64,000 nucleotides of DNA from Petasospora fabianii. Lineage: Eukaryota > Ascomycota > Saccharomycetes > Phaffomycetales > Wickerhamomycetaceae. The DNA is taken from NCBI GenBank assembly GCA_022641835.1, contig CP048715.1, forward strand, positions 2,170,001 to 2,234,000, written 5' to 3'. Positions 12,057-22,144 of the stretch are shown here, piece after piece. Position 1 is the stretch's first letter. The number at the start of each line of letters is the position of its first letter. Made by a program: the position numbers and the translations under genes. The notes beneath the pieces were generated by a model. The model saw only the letters and a list, made by a program, of their open reading frames with translations. It did not search any database and was not told where the DNA came from.

Positions 12057-13760
12057 TCATTTCACTGTCTTGTGCAATACAGTGTACAGCAATTCCAAGT
12101 TCTTGTACATCTGTGTGGTACATTGGGTGAGGTGCTCCTTGCCTCTCTGGTCAAGATCCATGTAGACGTCCAGGGCCATATCTTCATCATACAAGAGCTT
12201 ATGTGTCTTGTTGACAAACTCACGAAGAATACTTTCACGTTGGGACTGTAAGGCAATGTTTGGGATCATCTCCTTGACCTTGTCAAAAGGAACTCCCAAG
12301 TTGATTAAGACGTTCTTAATCATGTTCTGGGCTTGAACCAGTGAGAGTACATCGACCTCGGCGAGTTTGAGATCTTCGTACAATGGCACGCCGCATGTAG
12401 TCTTCGACATGAGCTCAGGATACTTCTCTGGAGTCACAGAGTCCTTGAGGTTTCCGCGCACTTTGTTCAACTCCGTATTCGAGATCTCTTGAAGCTTTTT
12501 GTAGTCACTTGAAACTGTGTCCAATTTCTTCTGGAGATCATCATTAGCAGCCTTCAGTCTACCACACTCTTGTTGGGAGTCAATGATCAATTGATCTTTC
12601 ACTTCTACCATCTCTTTGAGACTCATATTGGTGCCTTTAACAACGCTAGACTCGTCTCTCAACTCCTGGTTGGCGGTTTTGAGTTTTGTGAGCTCCCTTT
12701 CCAACGCGTCGGTATGAGCCTTCAGCTTATCAGTGGCCTCAACTTCGTCTTGCTTCTGCTTCGCAAGCTCCTTACTGACGTGGTCAAGCTTTTCGGACTT
12801 TTCAAGATTAATTTTCTGAGAGGCTTCCACCTCCAGGGTGAGTTTCTCATTATTCTGGACAACGTCGGCGTTCGTTGATTTCAAGTCAGCACTTTCCCTT
12901 GAAAGTATCACTATTTGCTCTTCTTTTTGTTTCAACTCCACTTCATGCTGCTTTGTCTGTTCCTCGAGCTTTTTTATGCGTGATTGTAATTGCTTGTTTT
13001 CGTCCTGTGCTGTGGTGAGCTGCAGATCACGCTTAGCAATGGCTTCCTTGGTAGAGATCTCGAAGTGATCGGACTTAGCACCTTTAGAGATGCTTTCCAT
13101 GACAAGGTAACCACCAGTTGTTTCAAGTAAGAAGTGTTTCAAGTCTCTCAACTCCTTTAATTCTTTTGCTTGTTGCTCTTGTTGTTGTAAAAGTTCTCGT
13201 TGCCTCTGTAGCTGAGCCTTTTCAGTAGAGCTTGGACGCGACTTTGATGGTGTATCCTCCAAATGCGAAGGCCTTGACGTATCATCACTATCATCACTAT
13301 CATCACTTGCGTCACTTGCATCATCAGTCTCTTCATCAAGCTCGGTGACTTCTGCAACATGAACACTCTGTGCCAACTTGGAGAGCTTAGACTTCAGTAA
13401 ATCCTTAGGTTGGGCTCGAGCGCCGTCAACTGGTGTTGATTGTGACAGTGGAACAGGGCTCTGATGTTTCTGTTGGTATGGAGTTTCTTGTACAGCAGCA
13501 GTAGCTCCCCCATCAGTAAACTGTGGGTTCAGTTGTGGCATCTTCTTCCGTTGCATTTGGATTTGTGTCTTGGTGTATGAGGTGTCATCCTCATTTTGGT
13601 TGGTTCCTCCATAGAGTTCATGATCTAGATAGTCAGCCATTTCGATAACACTCATGCCATTTAATTCTGGAATATCTGGAGCAATGACGGAATCCTCTGG
13701 CTCTGTTTGATCATAGAGAAACGATTCCTTTCCTGTGTTGGTGAATGCAACTGCCATCAT
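12057..13760 (-). CDS. CNM67: Coiled-coil protein, probable spindle pole body outer-plaque component (Cnm67/Ady3 ortholog)
   Basis: The 567-residue product has a poorly conserved N-terminus with a Ser/Asp-rich low-complexity stretch (about 145-180). A long heptad-rich coiled coil follows (about 185-440, Glu/Lys/Gln-rich). It ends in a compact, non-coiled C-terminal domain, with VLSLVQAQNMIKNVLINLGV and RESILREFVNKTHKLLYDED. Length and layout fit Cnm67 (581 aa in S. cerevisiae), whose C-terminal globular domain anchors the outer plaque to the central spindle pole body. Sequence alone would leave Slk19 or other coiled-coil proteins open. Position decides it: CNM67 (YNL225C) lies between SQS1 and JJJ1 in S. 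cerevisiae, and its paralog ADY3 (YDL239C) lies next to GUD1. Here the gene is beside JJJ1 and close to GUD1. Confidence 0.7.
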   Translation of the reverse strand: MMAVAFTNTGKESFLYDQTEPEDSVIAPDIPELNGMSVIEMADYLDHELYGGTNQNEDDTSYTKTQIQMQRKKMPQLNPQFTDGGATAAVQETPYQQKHQSPVPLSQSTPVDGARAQPKDLLKSKLSKLAQSVHVAEVTELDEETDDASDASDDSDDSDDTSRPSHLEDTPSKSRPSSTEKAQLQRQRELLQQQEQQAKELKELRDLKHFLLETTGGYLVMESISKGAKSDHFEISTKEAIAKRDLQLTTAQDENKQLQSRIKKLEEQTKQHEVELKQKEEQIVILSRESADLKSTNADVVQNNEKLTLEVEASQKINLEKSEKLDHVSKELAKQKQDEVEATDKLKAHTDALERELTKLKTANQELRDESSVVKGTNMSLKEMVEVKDQLIIDSQQECGRLKAANDDLQKKLDTVSSDYKKLQEISNTELNKVRGNLKDSVTPEKYPELMSKTTCGVPLYEDLKLAEVDVLSLVQAQNMIKNVLINLGVPFDKVKEMIPNIALQSQRESILREFVNKTHKLLYDEDMALDVYMDLDQRGKEHLTQCTTQMYKNLELLYTVLHKTVK

Positions 13761-14440
13761 GAGGTAGCGACTGGGAGCGAGATAGACAGGTTGAAGCGAA
13801 AGGTAACCGAAAGGATTCCAGTAGCAGAAGGTAGATGAAGAAGTTCAAGAAAGCAGATGCTGGCGTTTCGTGCGGTTGGAAGAGTCCTTTGTCTAGTTGT
13901 GGAGAAAGGAGAACTCAGAGACTTGATTAGAAAATGCTTCTGTAAATACCTGCGGAAAGTTCTGCGTGACTGTGGAAACTCTTGAAGTGCACTGCGAAAG
14001 GTTGTCGTGGTTCTTATCAACTTGTTTGTTTTGACGATGAGATTTGTGGCCCATATAGGCTGCCGCCTAAGCAACATTGTTTACATTTCGCACAGATGTC
14101 AACAAAGGGTTATCCGAGGGTTTTTGGACCGACTTCCGGTCGCAGCGCGATGTGTCCACTAAAGACCAAGGCTACAAATTTGCATGAGAAAAACCACATG
14201 ACTTCGTATACTCTCAAAGTACCTCGATTTTCTATAAACCTGACAGTTGTCACTCTAATAGAAGTGAGCAGTCGCATCGCAAGAAGCAGTGCCAAAACTA
14301 CCCCCTGCCCTAGTCTACATGTCGAAACACGGGTGTGCGTGTACCACACCCGACCACCACCTGCTCTCGAAAAAAGTATAAAAGGGCGCGCGCCCGCCCT
14401 GGGGACTTACCGTCCCCCTTTTACAATGTTTTTCTTCTTC
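13761..14440. promoter_or_regulatory. Upstream region shared by the CNM67-like gene and the U1 snRNA gene
   Basis: I find no convincing protein gene here. A TATA box (TATAAAA, 14377-14383) lies 64 bp upstream of the inferred U1 5' end and is followed by a GC-rich segment (about 14384-14405). Spacing of this kind is normal for RNA polymerase II snRNA promoters in yeasts. Confidence 0.55.
14377..14383 (+). promoter_or_regulatory. TATA box of the U1 snRNA gene
   Basis: TATAAAA sits 64 bp before the inferred U1 +1 at 14441. No other gene on this strand is positioned to use it. Confidence 0.65.
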
Positions 14441-14580
14441 ATACTTACCTTAAGATGCCACCAGAGATCAAGAAGTCTGTGTGGCCAGCGGGCCGTGTTT
14501 GCATTGCACAGCGCATCTCGGGCTGCTGCTGACGTTCTCTTCGGAGACGGGTGGGTCTTATAATTTTTGATGTTTCCTCT
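14441..14580 (+). ncRNA. snR19: U1 spliceosomal snRNA
   Basis: U1 recognises intron 5' splice sites by base pairing. The RNA begins ATACTTACCTTAAG (14441-14454), the invariant U1 5' end, whose ACTTAC complements the GTAAGT donors in this window. Stem-loop I is CCAC+CAGA (14458-14465) paired with TCTG..GTGG (14476-14484). Its loop is GATCAAGAAG (14466-14475), the U1-70K site. AUUGCAC, the U1A loop motif, is at 14503-14509. An outer stem II can form from CAGCGG (14486-14491) with CTGCTG near 14523-14531. Stem III is TCTC-UUCG-GAGA (14536-14547). The Sm site ATAATTTTTG is at 14560-14569, preceded by GTGGGTCTT, almost as in S. cerevisiae snR19. The 3' end is estimated: about 10 nt past the Sm site if it ends like snR19, longer if a terminal stem-loop is present. 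At about 140 nt it is far shorter than the 568-nt S. cerevisiae RNA. Confidence 0.93.
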
Positions 14581-15387
14581 TCTCCCTACACCGGTGCGTG
14601 TCTGTCATCCGCCTTCGCTGGAAGGTGTTTCGATGGTGGCCCAGTTGAGTGTAAGGGGGAACAGGTTTTCTTCGTGCTCACGTAGCATGAAACTTACGGG
14701 TGCTTCTTCGGATTGCTCGTCCTTTCCAGCGGGTTGGTGTCAGATGACACGTCTGGTTGGAGGATTGAATTAATCTTGTGGCTAGCATTTGAGGTTTGAG
14801 CTTCTCTGACGCACATTCCGTGTCGAGTATTTCTCCCCAACTAATGGTAGATCATCACAATACTCAGTTCTATGTAGTTTAGATAGGATAGTTGACAACG
14901 CTTTCACCTGTGGTTCATGGATGAACCAATATCGTCCGTCGGCTACGTGGTCCATGATGGGTGCTTATGCCAGCTCTGTGATTCGACAGCCGCCACGATG
15001 CGAAACACCACATAAAAGAGTCGCTGTCAATGACAACAACGCAATCATGCGACGTTTAGGTTATCCGCTGGAAACCTCCTAAGCTGCTTTCTGCTTTCCC
15101 GGCTTCCTCTATATCAATGCCTTCGTAAATAATGCCGTCTCTCAAAACTCCTCCAGCGCTTCCGTCACTTATTGGTGAATACTCTTTCCGCGTCGGCGAT
15201 GAGCGGCTCACGTCGTTGCCGACGGCACATCCGCCGGCATGTCCCATCGGTATCGCCGAACGTTGGCAATCTTTGATATCGCGTCGGGGCAGACCCCACA
15301 ACCGAACACATCTATAAAACACACATTCCTTTCTCCGTTTCCCAGAGAGGGATCAACAGTTGCAGGGACGGTTCCGACTTTTGGAAG
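14581..15387. other. Gene-free stretch between U1 and GUD1
   Basis: This holds any 3' extension of the U1 transcript and the GUD1 promoter. A TATA-like CTATAAAA is at 15310-15317, about 75 bp before the GUD1 ATG. GATA-type words (for example TAGATAGGATAG near 14880-14891) occur but are not clustered. No other gene was recognised. Confidence 0.45.
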
Positions 15388-18626: not shown

Positions 18627-19916
18627 ATGACTGACGTCGTATTGGGTTCCCAGTGGGGTGACGAGGGTAAAGGTAAGCTCGTGGACCTCTTGTGTGATGA
18701 TATTGATGTCTGTGCCCGTTGTGCTGGTGGTAACAATGCTGGTCATACCATCGTGGTCAACGGTGTCAAGTACGACTTCCACATGCTTCCATCTGGTCTC
18801 GTGAATCCAAAGTGTCAGAACCTTATTGGTAACGGTGTTGTCATTCACGTCCCATCCTTCTTCCAGGAGTTGGAAAACTTGGAGTCCAAGGGTCTCGACT
18901 GCAGAGACAGACTCTTTATCTCCTCCCGTGCCCACCTCGTCTTTGACTTCCACCAGAGAACAGACAAACTCCGTGAGGCTGAGCTCTCTGGTAACAAGAA
19001 GTCCATTGGTACTACAGGTAAGGGTATCGGTCCAACCTACTCCACCAAGGCCTCCAGATCTGGGCTCAGAGTTCACCACCTCGTTAACGATAACGAAGGT
19101 GCCTGGGAAGAATTCGAGACTAAGTACAGACGTCTTGTTGCCACCAGACAGCAGCGTTACGGTGGCTTTGATTACGACATTGAGGATGAGATTGCCCGCT
19201 ACAGAAAATACAAGGAGCAACTCAAGCCATTTGTCGTTGACTCTGTTGAGTTCATCCACTCCGCTATTGCCCAGAAGAAGAAGATCCTTGTGGAAGGTGC
19301 TAATGCTCTCATGCTTGATATTGACTTTGGTACTTACCCATACGTGACATCTTCCGCTACTGGTATTGGTGGTGTTATTACTGGTCTTGGTGTCCCACCA
19401 CGTGCCATCAAGAACGTCTATGGTGTCGTCAAGGCCTATACCACCCGTGTCGGTGAAGGTCCATTCCCAACTGAGCAGCTCAATGCCGATGGTGAGAAGT
19501 TGCAGGACATTGGTGCCGAGTACGGTGTCACCACTGGTAGAAAGAGACGTTGCGGTTGGTTGGATCTCGTCGTGTTGAAGTACTCCAACATGATCAACGG
19601 TTACACCTCTTTGAACATCACCAAGCTCGATGTTCTTGACACATTTAAGGAGATCCCAGTCGGTATTGCATACAAGCTCAACGGTAAGACTCTGCCTTCT
19701 TTCCCAGAGGACTTGATCGATTTGGGTAAGGTTGAGGTTGTCTATGAGACCCTTCCAGGTTGGAACACCGACATCACAAAGATCACCAAGTACGAGGATC
19801 TTCCGGAGAACGCCAAGTCCTACTTGGCCTATATTGAGAAGTTCCTTGGTGTTCCTGTTGAGTGGGTCGGTACCGGTCCTGGTAGAGAGTCCATGTTGCA
19901 CAAGCCAATCAACTAA
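18627..19916 (+). CDS. ADE12: Adenylosuccinate synthetase
   Basis: The enzyme makes adenylosuccinate from IMP, aspartate and GTP, the first committed step from IMP to AMP. The 429-residue product begins with the GTP/IMP-binding signature [17 protein letters not shown]. It contains [27 protein letters not shown], the IMP loop around [20 protein letters not shown], and [15 protein letters not shown] for aspartate and IMP. Length is typical (433 aa in S. cerevisiae). Codon bias is strong, as in the malic enzyme and GDH genes. In S. cerevisiae ADE12 (YNL220W) is beside ALG9 (YNL219C), as here. Confidence 0.97.
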
Positions 19917-20293: not shown

Positions 20294-22144
20294 TTACTCA
20301 GTTATAGGCCCACCCTTCTTCTTGAGCTCCAGGGAAGCAGCATCAACATACTTAGACTTCTCCTGATCTATAATACCAGTCTCAGGTGGGATCTGCTCCT
20401 CGTGAACCTCCAGTTCTGGTTCCTTGGTGTCATCTGGATCAAGACCAATCCTCTGATACAAGTTGTAATCATGGAAGACAACCTCACCCCTTGCAAATCC
20501 ACGAGCCCATTTTGGTAAATACAAATACTTACCAATACCTTGGCTCTTAGCATTATCTAAGAATTTGGCCGAATACAACAACTTCCAACCGGGTCTGACA
20601 ACGCCTTCATCGTCAATGAATTGAACCTCGCCACTCTCAACATCAACAGGTTCGTTGATGTCAATCATGTAATCACAACCTTCCAATGAAATGACCTTCT
20701 TTGGATCATACAAGTTTTCACTGTTCATACCCTCAGGTATGATCTTGATGTTCTTGATCAAAGATCCAGCATCCTCAGAGAAGTCGCCCGGTAACAATCC
20801 TCTGAATCCAGACTCAACGAATTGTAAACGGGCATGGACCGGTAAGAAAAGGGATGATGGGTATCTATACCATTCACGGCCAACGCAAACGTTTCCTTCA
20901 GCAGTAGATGGGATGTGGGCATATACTTCGAGTGGTGTGTTGTAGTTTGAGGATATGGAAATGGTTCTCGATAGAGATATGCTAGCTATGACAATAGCGG
21001 TGATTCCGACAGTGATGTAGTAAATGAGTCGGGCAAATGATGGTCTGCGAGTGATGACACGCACGATTGATCTGATTGCAGAAAGGATGAGTGAAACGGT
21101 TATGGAAGCGGATGTGATGATAAGAGTGTAAATTGGATAAAGGAAACGTTCCTCCTTATGTGGCTGGCTGAAGAAGACGCCGGTCCAGATGGCTATAGGC
21201 GCAATGACTCCGAAGGTGAGGGCTCCACTAAGACGCTTACTAGTCTTGATGAACGCAATGCCCGGGATAATGATACAGCCAAGGTATCCCAATACGGCAA
21301 CAACGTTGAAGTTGAGAAGAAGGTTGTGGATGTAGTATGAAACGTCCTCAACACCAAAGATGTTTGGTCCGGAAGCCTCGGATGCATTCACAACGTTGTA
21401 AAGCACAATATTAAGTGGGACGATGACTGTACGACCATAGAACCAGTAATCAACCTCAATGATTACAACAAGGTAGAATGCAACGATGGCAATAGACCAA
21501 TTGATGTAACGCGCTAGCTGCAAACCCACACCATAGGAGTCCCAAATGATGTAAAGCATTGATGGTACTGCAAGGGCAAGCGCAAATGGCCATCCCAAGA
21601 GGCCACCAATAGTGAACCAAGAGGTCACAAGGAGGGCATTACGTGTGGAGTGTGTGCTTGTAGCGTAACGTATAAAATTTGATGTGGCAAGTGTTGTACA
21701 TGTCATGGCAAGTGACGACGGGAGAAGAGCAATAGAAGCGTGTGACATACCTGTGGCTGTGACAGTGAAAATGATGAACCAGTTGGCAATCGCCTGTGAA
21801 CAGTGTGTCTTGAGTGTGTGGTACATGTGATGTTCAGCGTAGATATTAGTGGATGCGATGATGAGTCTGATTGCGTAGAACACAACGAACGGAGGGATAC
21901 CTGTGATCAGGTCTGTTAAGAAGGCCAATGGATACGTGAGTAGGGCATAAGGAGCAAGATATGCCCATGAACGAATAGCATATTCTGGCGAATACTCCCA
22001 TGTCTGCTTTCCGAAGCCACGTATGAGCACGTTTAAAGGCTCGTAGTAGTTGAACACCTCATCGCAGTCAGGGATGAGGGCGTAGAAGACATTGTAGAGA
22101 CGGGCAACCACGAGGGCACCAATCTGAAGCTTTTCAAGACCCAT
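20294..22144 (-). CDS. ALG9: Alpha-1,2-mannosyltransferase Alg9 (GT22 family)
   Basis: Alg9 adds the seventh and ninth mannoses to dolichol-linked oligosaccharide on the luminal face of the ER. The 616-residue polytopic membrane protein begins with GALVVARLYNVFYALIPDCD and EVFNYYEPLNVLIRG. The acidic DCDE in the first luminal loop is the GT22 catalytic signature. Many hydrophobic segments follow to about residue 400, including the family stretch HKEERFLYPIYTLI, and the C-terminal part is soluble. Length is comparable to S. cerevisiae Alg9 (555 aa). It is transcribed divergently from PPN2. Confidence 0.94.
   Translation of the reverse strand: MGLEKLQIGALVVARLYNVFYALIPDCDEVFNYYEPLNVLIRGFGKQTWEYSPEYAIRSWAYLAPYALLTYPLAFLTDLITGIPPFVVFYAIRLIIASTNIYAEHHMYHTLKTHCSQAIANWFIIFTVTATGMSHASIALLPSSLAMTCTTLATSNFIRYATSTHSTRNALLVTSWFTIGGLLGWPFALALAVPSMLYIIWDSYGVGLQLARYINWSIAIVAFYLVVIIEVDYWFYGRTVIVPLNIVLYNVVNASEASGPNIFGVEDVSYYIHNLLLNFNVVAVLGYLGCIIIPGIAFIKTSKRLSGALTFGVIAPIAIWTGVFFSQPHKEERFLYPIYTLIITSASITVSLILSAIRSIVRVITRRPSFARLIYYITVGITAIVIASISLSRTISISSNYNTPLEVYAHIPSTAEGNVCVGREWYRYPSSLFLPVHARLQFVESGFRGLLPGDFSEDAGSLIKNIKIIPEGMNSENLYDPKKVISLEGCDYMIDINEPVDVESGEVQFIDDEGVVRPGWKLLYSAKFLDNAKSQGIGKYLYLPKWARGFARGEVVFHDYNLYQRIGLDPDDTKEPELEVHEEQIPPETGIIDQEKSKYVDAASLELKKKGGPITE

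What the first reader, a model, noticed from the sequence alone, without database searches (positions are those of the whole stretch)
14441..14580. Compact U1 snRNA gene of about 140 nt
The sequence from 14441 carries all U1 landmarks in order: 5' ATACTTACCT, a U1-70K loop on a stem with CCAC/GTGG and CAGA/TCTG arms, an AUUGCAC motif, a UUCG-capped stem III, and an Sm site preceded by GTGGGTCTT. S. cerevisiae U1 is 568 nt with large yeast-specific insertions and extra associated proteins. This one is near the ancestral and human size (164 nt), so it reports on how the yeast U1 expanded. Whether a 3' stem-loop IV exists after the Sm site is unclear from the sequence.
Basis: partly seen in the sequence, partly recalled or inferred. 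Interest (0 to 1): 0.85.

Follow-up and report, generated by a model that had tools for sequence, protein, structure and literature searches.

The report
Compact yeast U1 splicing RNA gene
This is an ordinary, probably working gene for the U1 splicing RNA in a yeast close to Cyberlindnera fabianii; it has a small animal-like form and an animal-like U1A protein to match, although the genome also encodes several of the extra U1 proteins known from baker's yeast.

Summary
Window 14441-14576 (+) matches Rfam U1_yeast over its whole model (92.6 bits, cut-off 80, E 1.2e-17) and is the only genome match found with either U1 model (capped candidate lists). The genome is Cyberlindnera fabianii or a very close relative (one protein 100% identical). 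No stem-loop IV showed up; the yeast model also ends just past the Sm site.

A TATA motif, TATAAAAGG(0-8)GCGCGC, occurs twice in the genome: before U1 and before U2. The stem II loop is the animal-type U1A site AUUGCAC, and a U1A-like protein of this genome has an animal-type RRM1 without the S. cerevisiae insertion.

Four of the seven extra proteins of S. cerevisiae U1 (Prp39, Prp42, Nam8, Luc7) are encoded, although stem 2-2 and the large stem III are absent. So those genes can exist without the RNA insertions. Snu56 is undecided, Prp40 and Snu71 were not searched. Compact hemiascomycete U1s as a class are probably known (key paper not held). New member of a known kind.

The parts
14377..14391 (+). 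TATA box and GC block, TATAAAAGGGCGCGC, promoter motif shared with the U2 gene
   Evidence: pattern TATAAAAGGN{0,8}GCGCGC: 2 matches in 12.3 Mb, here and 74 bp before U2; 0.19 expected from base composition; motif chosen after seeing both promoters
14441..14576 (+). U1 snRNA gene
   Evidence: RF00488 92.6 bits, E 1.2e-17, whole model; only genome match reported
14441..14450 (+). 5' end AUACUUACCU that pairs with 5' splice sites (pairing inferred)
   Evidence: sequence; GTATGT and GTAAGT 5' splice sites in this genome's U1A-like and U1C genes
14452..14455 (+). helix H, 5' arm AAGA
   Evidence: near the Rfam structure line; pair probability 0.95-0.97 for the three pairs checked
14457..14485 (+). 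stem-loop I, U1-70K site, loop GAUCAAGAAG 14466-14475
   Evidence: low pair probability in plain folding; U1-70K gene present
14486..14528 (+). stem-loop II, human-sized, terminal 10-nt loop AUUGCACAGC 14503-14512 (U1A site)
   Evidence: MFE and centroid; 0.59-0.96 for the four pairs checked
14533..14549 (+). short stem-loop III with UUCG loop 14540-14543
   Evidence: 0.44-0.69 for the three pairs checked
14556..14559 (+). helix H, 3' arm UCUU
14563..14569 (+). Sm site AUUUUUG
   Evidence: sequence, Rfam alignment
14602..14639 (+). possible 3' processing hairpin (tetraloop GCUG), inference only
   Evidence: stretches holding it fold with z -1.9 and -1.2 against mononucleotide shuffles: weak

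Best explanation
It is the U1 snRNA gene, the only copy that two Rfam models report, of a yeast that is Cyberlindnera fabianii or very close to it. The RNA (about 136 nt) is made from a TATA promoter that shares a motif with U2, presumably by Pol II; it binds Sm proteins at AUUUUUG, U1-70K at stem I and a U1A-type protein at a human-type stem II loop, and its 5' end pairs with 5' splice sites (GUAAGU/GUAUGU). It has the compact, human-like form; the large stem III and stem 2-2 of S. cerevisiae are absent, and a human-type U1A-like RRM1 in the same genome suggests that the compact state is retained rather than secondarily trimmed. Shown: RNA identity, promoter motif, protein genes. Inferred: expression by Pol II, capping, protein binding, that the state is ancestral.
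For: Rfam match over the full model, no other match reported in the genome. Promoter motif only at U1 (-64) and U2 (-74); U4 and U5 have TATA boxes at -69 and -86 from their Rfam match starts, without the GC block. Encoded: U1-70K, a U1A-like protein, U1C, Prp39, Prp42, Luc7, Nam8. U1A-like RRM1: no alpha1-beta2 insertion in 10 of 10 close rows that span it; KMRGQAF as in human, whereas S. cerevisiae U1A reads KMTNQAF. U2 is also compact (221 nt). C. fabianii keeps the exon junction genes Mago and Y14, absent from S. cerevisiae (PMC6351623, passages).
Against: No expression data. Folding energy alone gives no support. RF00003 score is below its cut-off. The U1A-like protein matches human U2B'' nearly as well as human U1A (E 3.2e-23 and 1.3e-24), and sources name three of its 22 homologues U2B''; it could serve both RNAs. 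Ancestral versus secondarily reduced rests on one genome; no relative's U1 could be fetched (0 matches in viral contigs).
Confidence: 0.93

Rival explanations
1. Secondary trimming: the ancestor had an S. cerevisiae-like large U1 and this lineage lost stem 2-2 and most of stem III, while a human-like U1A loop re-arose.
For: Prp42, which in S. cerevisiae touches SL2-2 and SL3-4 (PMC5648754, passages), and its partner Prp39 are encoded here.
Against: It would need the U1A protein to lose the insertion and the RNA to regain AUUGCAC together; the animal-type RRM1 is shared by the close relatives found.
Confidence: 0.08
2. A silent U1 pseudogene or paralogue, the real U1 lying in an assembly gap or missed by the capped searches.
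For: The assembly has 16 contigs and may be incomplete; only 11 of 1188 and 41 of 218 first-look candidates were scored; no expression data.
Against: All functional elements intact, promoter motif shared with U2 only, no other match with two U1 models.
Confidence: 0.03
3. Chance resemblance, no RNA gene.
For: Thermodynamic z-score of only -0.63.
Against: E 1.2e-17 with all landmarks in order.
Confidence: 0.001

Closest known systems
Yeast U1 spliceosomal RNA (Rfam RF00488, 567 positions), type S. cerevisiae U1
   Same: 5' end, stem I loop GAUCAAGAAG, helix H, Sm site and RNA ending shortly after it; over the curated cut-off
   Different: Lacks SL2-2 and the enlarged stem III (about 15 times human size in S. 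cerevisiae); U1A site is AUUGCAC in a terminal loop, not CACAUAC in an internal loop (S. cerevisiae facts from PMC5648754, passages)
Metazoan U1 snRNA (Rfam RF00003), human 164 nt (length recalled)
   Same: Size of stems I-III, 10-nt stem II loop starting AUUGCAC closed by C-G (human loop recalled)
   Different: No stem-loop IV found; score 55.1 below the 69.5 cut-off
Other hemiascomycete U1 snRNAs (Mitrovich and Guthrie 2007, RNA 13:2066; seen only as a citation) and the U1 candidates from 227 of 230 Saccharomycotina genomes in PMC10581693 (passages)
   Same: Same gene, ACUUACC invariant there
S. pombe U1 (about 149 nt) with Prp39-like extra proteins (recalled, no call)
   Same: Compact U1 together with extra U1 proteins
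   Different: Different subphylum; not compared

Membership tests
U1 snRNA (RF00488) | Covariance score over the curated cut-off | tested here: met
   92.6 vs 80 bits
U1 snRNA (RF00488) | 5' ACUUACC | tested here: met
   14443-14449
U1 snRNA (RF00488) | Stem I with U1-70K loop | tested here: met
   GAUCAAGAAG 14466-14475 on a 9-bp stem, aligned by the model with no non-standard pair marked in stem I; plain folding does not favour it
U1 snRNA (RF00488) | Sm site after helix H | tested here: met
   AUUUUUG 14563-14569
U1 snRNA (RF00488) | Abundant, trimethylguanosine-capped, in the spliceosome | not testable with these tools
   no expression data
S. cerevisiae-type large U1 | SL2-2 and enlarged stem III | tested here: not met
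   136-nt match; model stretches of 104 and 355 positions stand against 25 and 5 nt
S. cerevisiae-type large U1 | U1A protein with alpha1-beta2 insertion | tested here: not met
   (the protein's name as U1A rather than U2B'' is likely, not proven)
Metazoan-type U1 (RF00003) | Score over the curated cut-off | tested here: not met
   55.1 vs 69.5 bits
Metazoan-type U1 (RF00003) | Terminal stem II loop with AUUGCAC | tested here: met
   AUUGCACAGC, MFE and centroid
Metazoan-type U1 (RF00003) | 3' stem-loop IV | tested here: not met
   14569-14610 folds at -2.6 (shuffles mean -4.9), 14569-14600 at -1.6 (-4.2), 14577-14610 at -2.2 (-3.0)

The most novel reading that the evidence does not exclude
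This yeast keeps the ancestral U1 RNA with its human-type U1A partner while already holding a Prp42/Prp39/Nam8/Luc7 arm, so the extra proteins came first, and the switch of the U1A site plus the gain of SL2-2 and the large stem III happened later, as linked steps, on the line to Saccharomycetaceae. Its U1 particle would be a natural equivalent of the engineered S. cerevisiae RNAs without SL2-2 or most of stem III, with Prp42 still docked through U1C, even though its U1C is only 121 aa. (Odds set at 0.42, from 0.45 in my draft, because the U1A-like protein cannot be told from U2B'' by score alone.)
Probability: 0.42. Interest if true: 0.5.

Novelty: new member of a known kind. Interest (0 to 1): 0.36.

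Why it matters
S. cerevisiae U1 is the model for yeast splicing but is odd in size and protein make-up. A yeast from the order Phaffomycetales, close to Saccharomycetaceae, with a human-sized RNA, a human-type U1A site and genes for Prp42, Prp39, Nam8 and Luc7 lets one separate what the RNA insertions do from what the extra proteins do. PMC5648754 (passages) argues that Prp42 contacts with SL2-2 and SL3-4 are unlikely to be required but may strengthen the attachment; this species is a natural test of that.

Tried and rejected
Thermodynamic folding as proof: it fails and is not used. Reading a stem-loop IV into the 3' flank: not supported. A second U1 at 20525, where ATACTTACC recurs on the + strand: no covariance match there, rejected. 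Snu56 by Pfam PF19097: no match, but no control genome rang either, so absence is not claimed; Prp40 and Snu71 were not searched. Relatives' U1 genes: one exact-pattern scan of viral contigs gave 0. Intron count in the window by motif: 1 candidate against a mean of 6.0 in shuffles, uninformative. Rnt1-type processing hairpin after U1: z only -1.9 and -1.2, left as a lead. The zf-U1 search also rang in 1 of 14 control genomes (E. coli), so the U1C call rests on the assembled sequence, judged by eye.

Papers: PMC5648754, PMC10581693, PMC6351623, PMC2911113, PMC5033589 and PMC5499181 were seen as passages only; Mitrovich and Guthrie 2007 is not held. No description of the C. fabianii U1 showed in the listings of searches, which cover only the open library and show listings, not full texts.

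Full report
What is there. The window lies at C1:2170001-2234000 of a 12.3 Mb genome in 16 contigs. The adenylosuccinate synthetase gene at 18627-19916 is 100% identical over 429 aa to a Cyberlindnera fabianii entry, next 90% to C. jadinii (best 120 of 1871 hits listed), so the species is C. fabianii (now Petasospora fabianii in NCBI, order Phaffomycetales) or very close. A Med16 gene of the window had, among its 12 hits, only one with a named species, Wickerhamomyces ciferrii at 48%, in line with this order.

The U1 gene. Rfam U1_yeast matches 14441-14576 over its whole length, 92.6 bits against a cut-off of 80. It is the only match reported in the genome for U1_yeast (11 of 1188 first-look candidates scored) and for the metazoan U1 model (55.1 bits, below cut-off; 41 of 218 scored). 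In the Rfam alignment two stretches of 104 and 355 model positions stand against 25 and 5 nt: these are in stems II and III, where S. cerevisiae has its additions. Stem I differs from the consensus in letters but has no non-standard pair marked; one such pair is marked in stem II and one in stem III. RNA folding energy gives no independent support.

Gene context. Upstream are TATAAAA at -64 and a pyrimidine-rich stretch (16 of the last 20 bases). U2 (221 nt), U4 and U5 are each reported as single matches, with TATA boxes at -74, -69 and -86 from their match starts; the 20 bases before the U5 match are not pyrimidine-rich (9 of 20), so its true start may differ. The longer motif TATAAAAGG(0-8)GCGCGC is found twice in the genome, before U1 and before U2, with no match to the reversed control; about 0.19 would be expected from base composition. 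It is not at U4 or U5. The motif was chosen after seeing the two promoters, so the weight lies in its absence elsewhere and its like position in both.

Partner proteins. U1-70K (85.8 bits). U1A-like protein: two RRMs, best PDB match human U1-A (E 1.3e-24), human U2B'' close behind (E 3.2e-23); the first RRM of S. cerevisiae U1A aligns at only 5-8 bits, the second at about 53 bits. Sources name 3 of its 22 homologues U2B''. I read it as U1A because it has two RRMs, its second RRM matches that of S. cerevisiae U1A, and a separate 96-aa protein best matches a U2B'' chain; a protein serving both RNAs is not excluded. With its first exon it is 214 aa; over 87 aligned RRM1 positions 27 are identical to human without a gap, and 13 of 19 recalled RNA-contact positions agree, including K50 to Q54 and F56. 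I aligned 20 rows: the protein, 18 of its 22 homologues (P0013, P0031, P0032 and P0033 left out) and the U2B''. The 10 close rows that span helix 1 to strand 2 all lack an insertion. S. cerevisiae U1A has a 30-residue insertion there and binds CACAUAC (PMC5648754, passage). So RNA site and protein agree in each species: human-type here, changed there.

Extra proteins. PMC5648754 (passage) lists seven extra proteins in purified yeast U1: Luc7, Nam8, Prp39, Prp40, Prp42, Snu56, Snu71. Four are encoded here: Prp39 (E 2.6e-72), Prp42 (E 2.5e-43, best match S. cerevisiae PRP42), Nam8 (E 7.4e-97), Luc7 (235 bits). Snu56 was not found but the search had no working control; Prp40 and Snu71 were not searched. 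U1C, joined from three exons, is 121 aa; the S. cerevisiae protein reaches at least residue 231 (deletion 49-231 in PMC5648754). Hence the extra protein genes and the RNA insertions are not one package. That the proteins sit on U1 here is not shown. In S. cerevisiae Prp42 contacts U1C most extensively, with SL2-2 and SL3-4 as further contacts; deletion of SL2-2 allows growth at 30 C but not at 37 C (PMC5648754, passages).

How it works, in likelihood. Shown: gene, promoter motif, protein genes. Inferred: the RNA is transcribed by Pol II, trimmed at the 3' end, bound by Sm, U1-70K and U1A and used to select 5' splice sites. The U1A-like gene's intron begins GTATGT and the two U1C introns GTAAGT and GTATGT, all fitting ACUUACC. 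PMC10581693 (passages) reports a preference for +4 A in Phaffomycetaceae, where PMC6351623 (passage) files C. fabianii, and an unchanged ACUUACC in all species in which U1 was found.

Novelty. U1 candidates were found in 227 of 230 Saccharomycotina genomes before (PMC10581693, passage), and snRNA changes in hemiascomycetes were treated by Mitrovich and Guthrie 2007, which I could not read. PMC6351623 (passages) already notes that C. fabianii keeps exon junction complex genes that other yeasts lost, so an old-fashioned splicing apparatus in this species is not a surprise. The useful increment is the joint picture of RNA, U1A-type protein and extra proteins in one genome.

Noticed in passing
L002, U2 gene at G000:C1:1317399-1317619 (-): The U2 stem IV loop reads GCC(AUUGCACUGCAA)GGC (by eye, sequence), nearly the same as the U1 stem II loop AUUGCACAGC, although separate U1A-like and U2B'' genes exist; how the two proteins tell the RNAs apart is open.
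   Followed up: partly
window 14384-14395 and 14401-14417: Two perfect inverted repeats lie between the TATA box and the U1 start: GGGCGCGCGCCC and GGGGAC-TTACC-GTCCCC; the second holds an extra ACTTACC 38 bp before the one in U1.
   Followed up: partly
L002 and L053, downstream of U2 and U5: Strong hairpins follow the U2 and U5 genes (z -7.8 and -4.3 against mononucleotide shuffles), as expected for RNase III processing; those after U1 (-1.9) and U4 (-1.3) are weak.
   Followed up: partly
G000, RRM search: 93 RRM matches at E 0.001 or better in a 12.3 Mb yeast genome, a number not compared with other yeasts.
   Followed up: no
window 12057-13760 (-): The nearest long open frame upstream of U1 encodes a 567-aa protein with a Pfam 'Septation initiation' match.
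   Followed up: no
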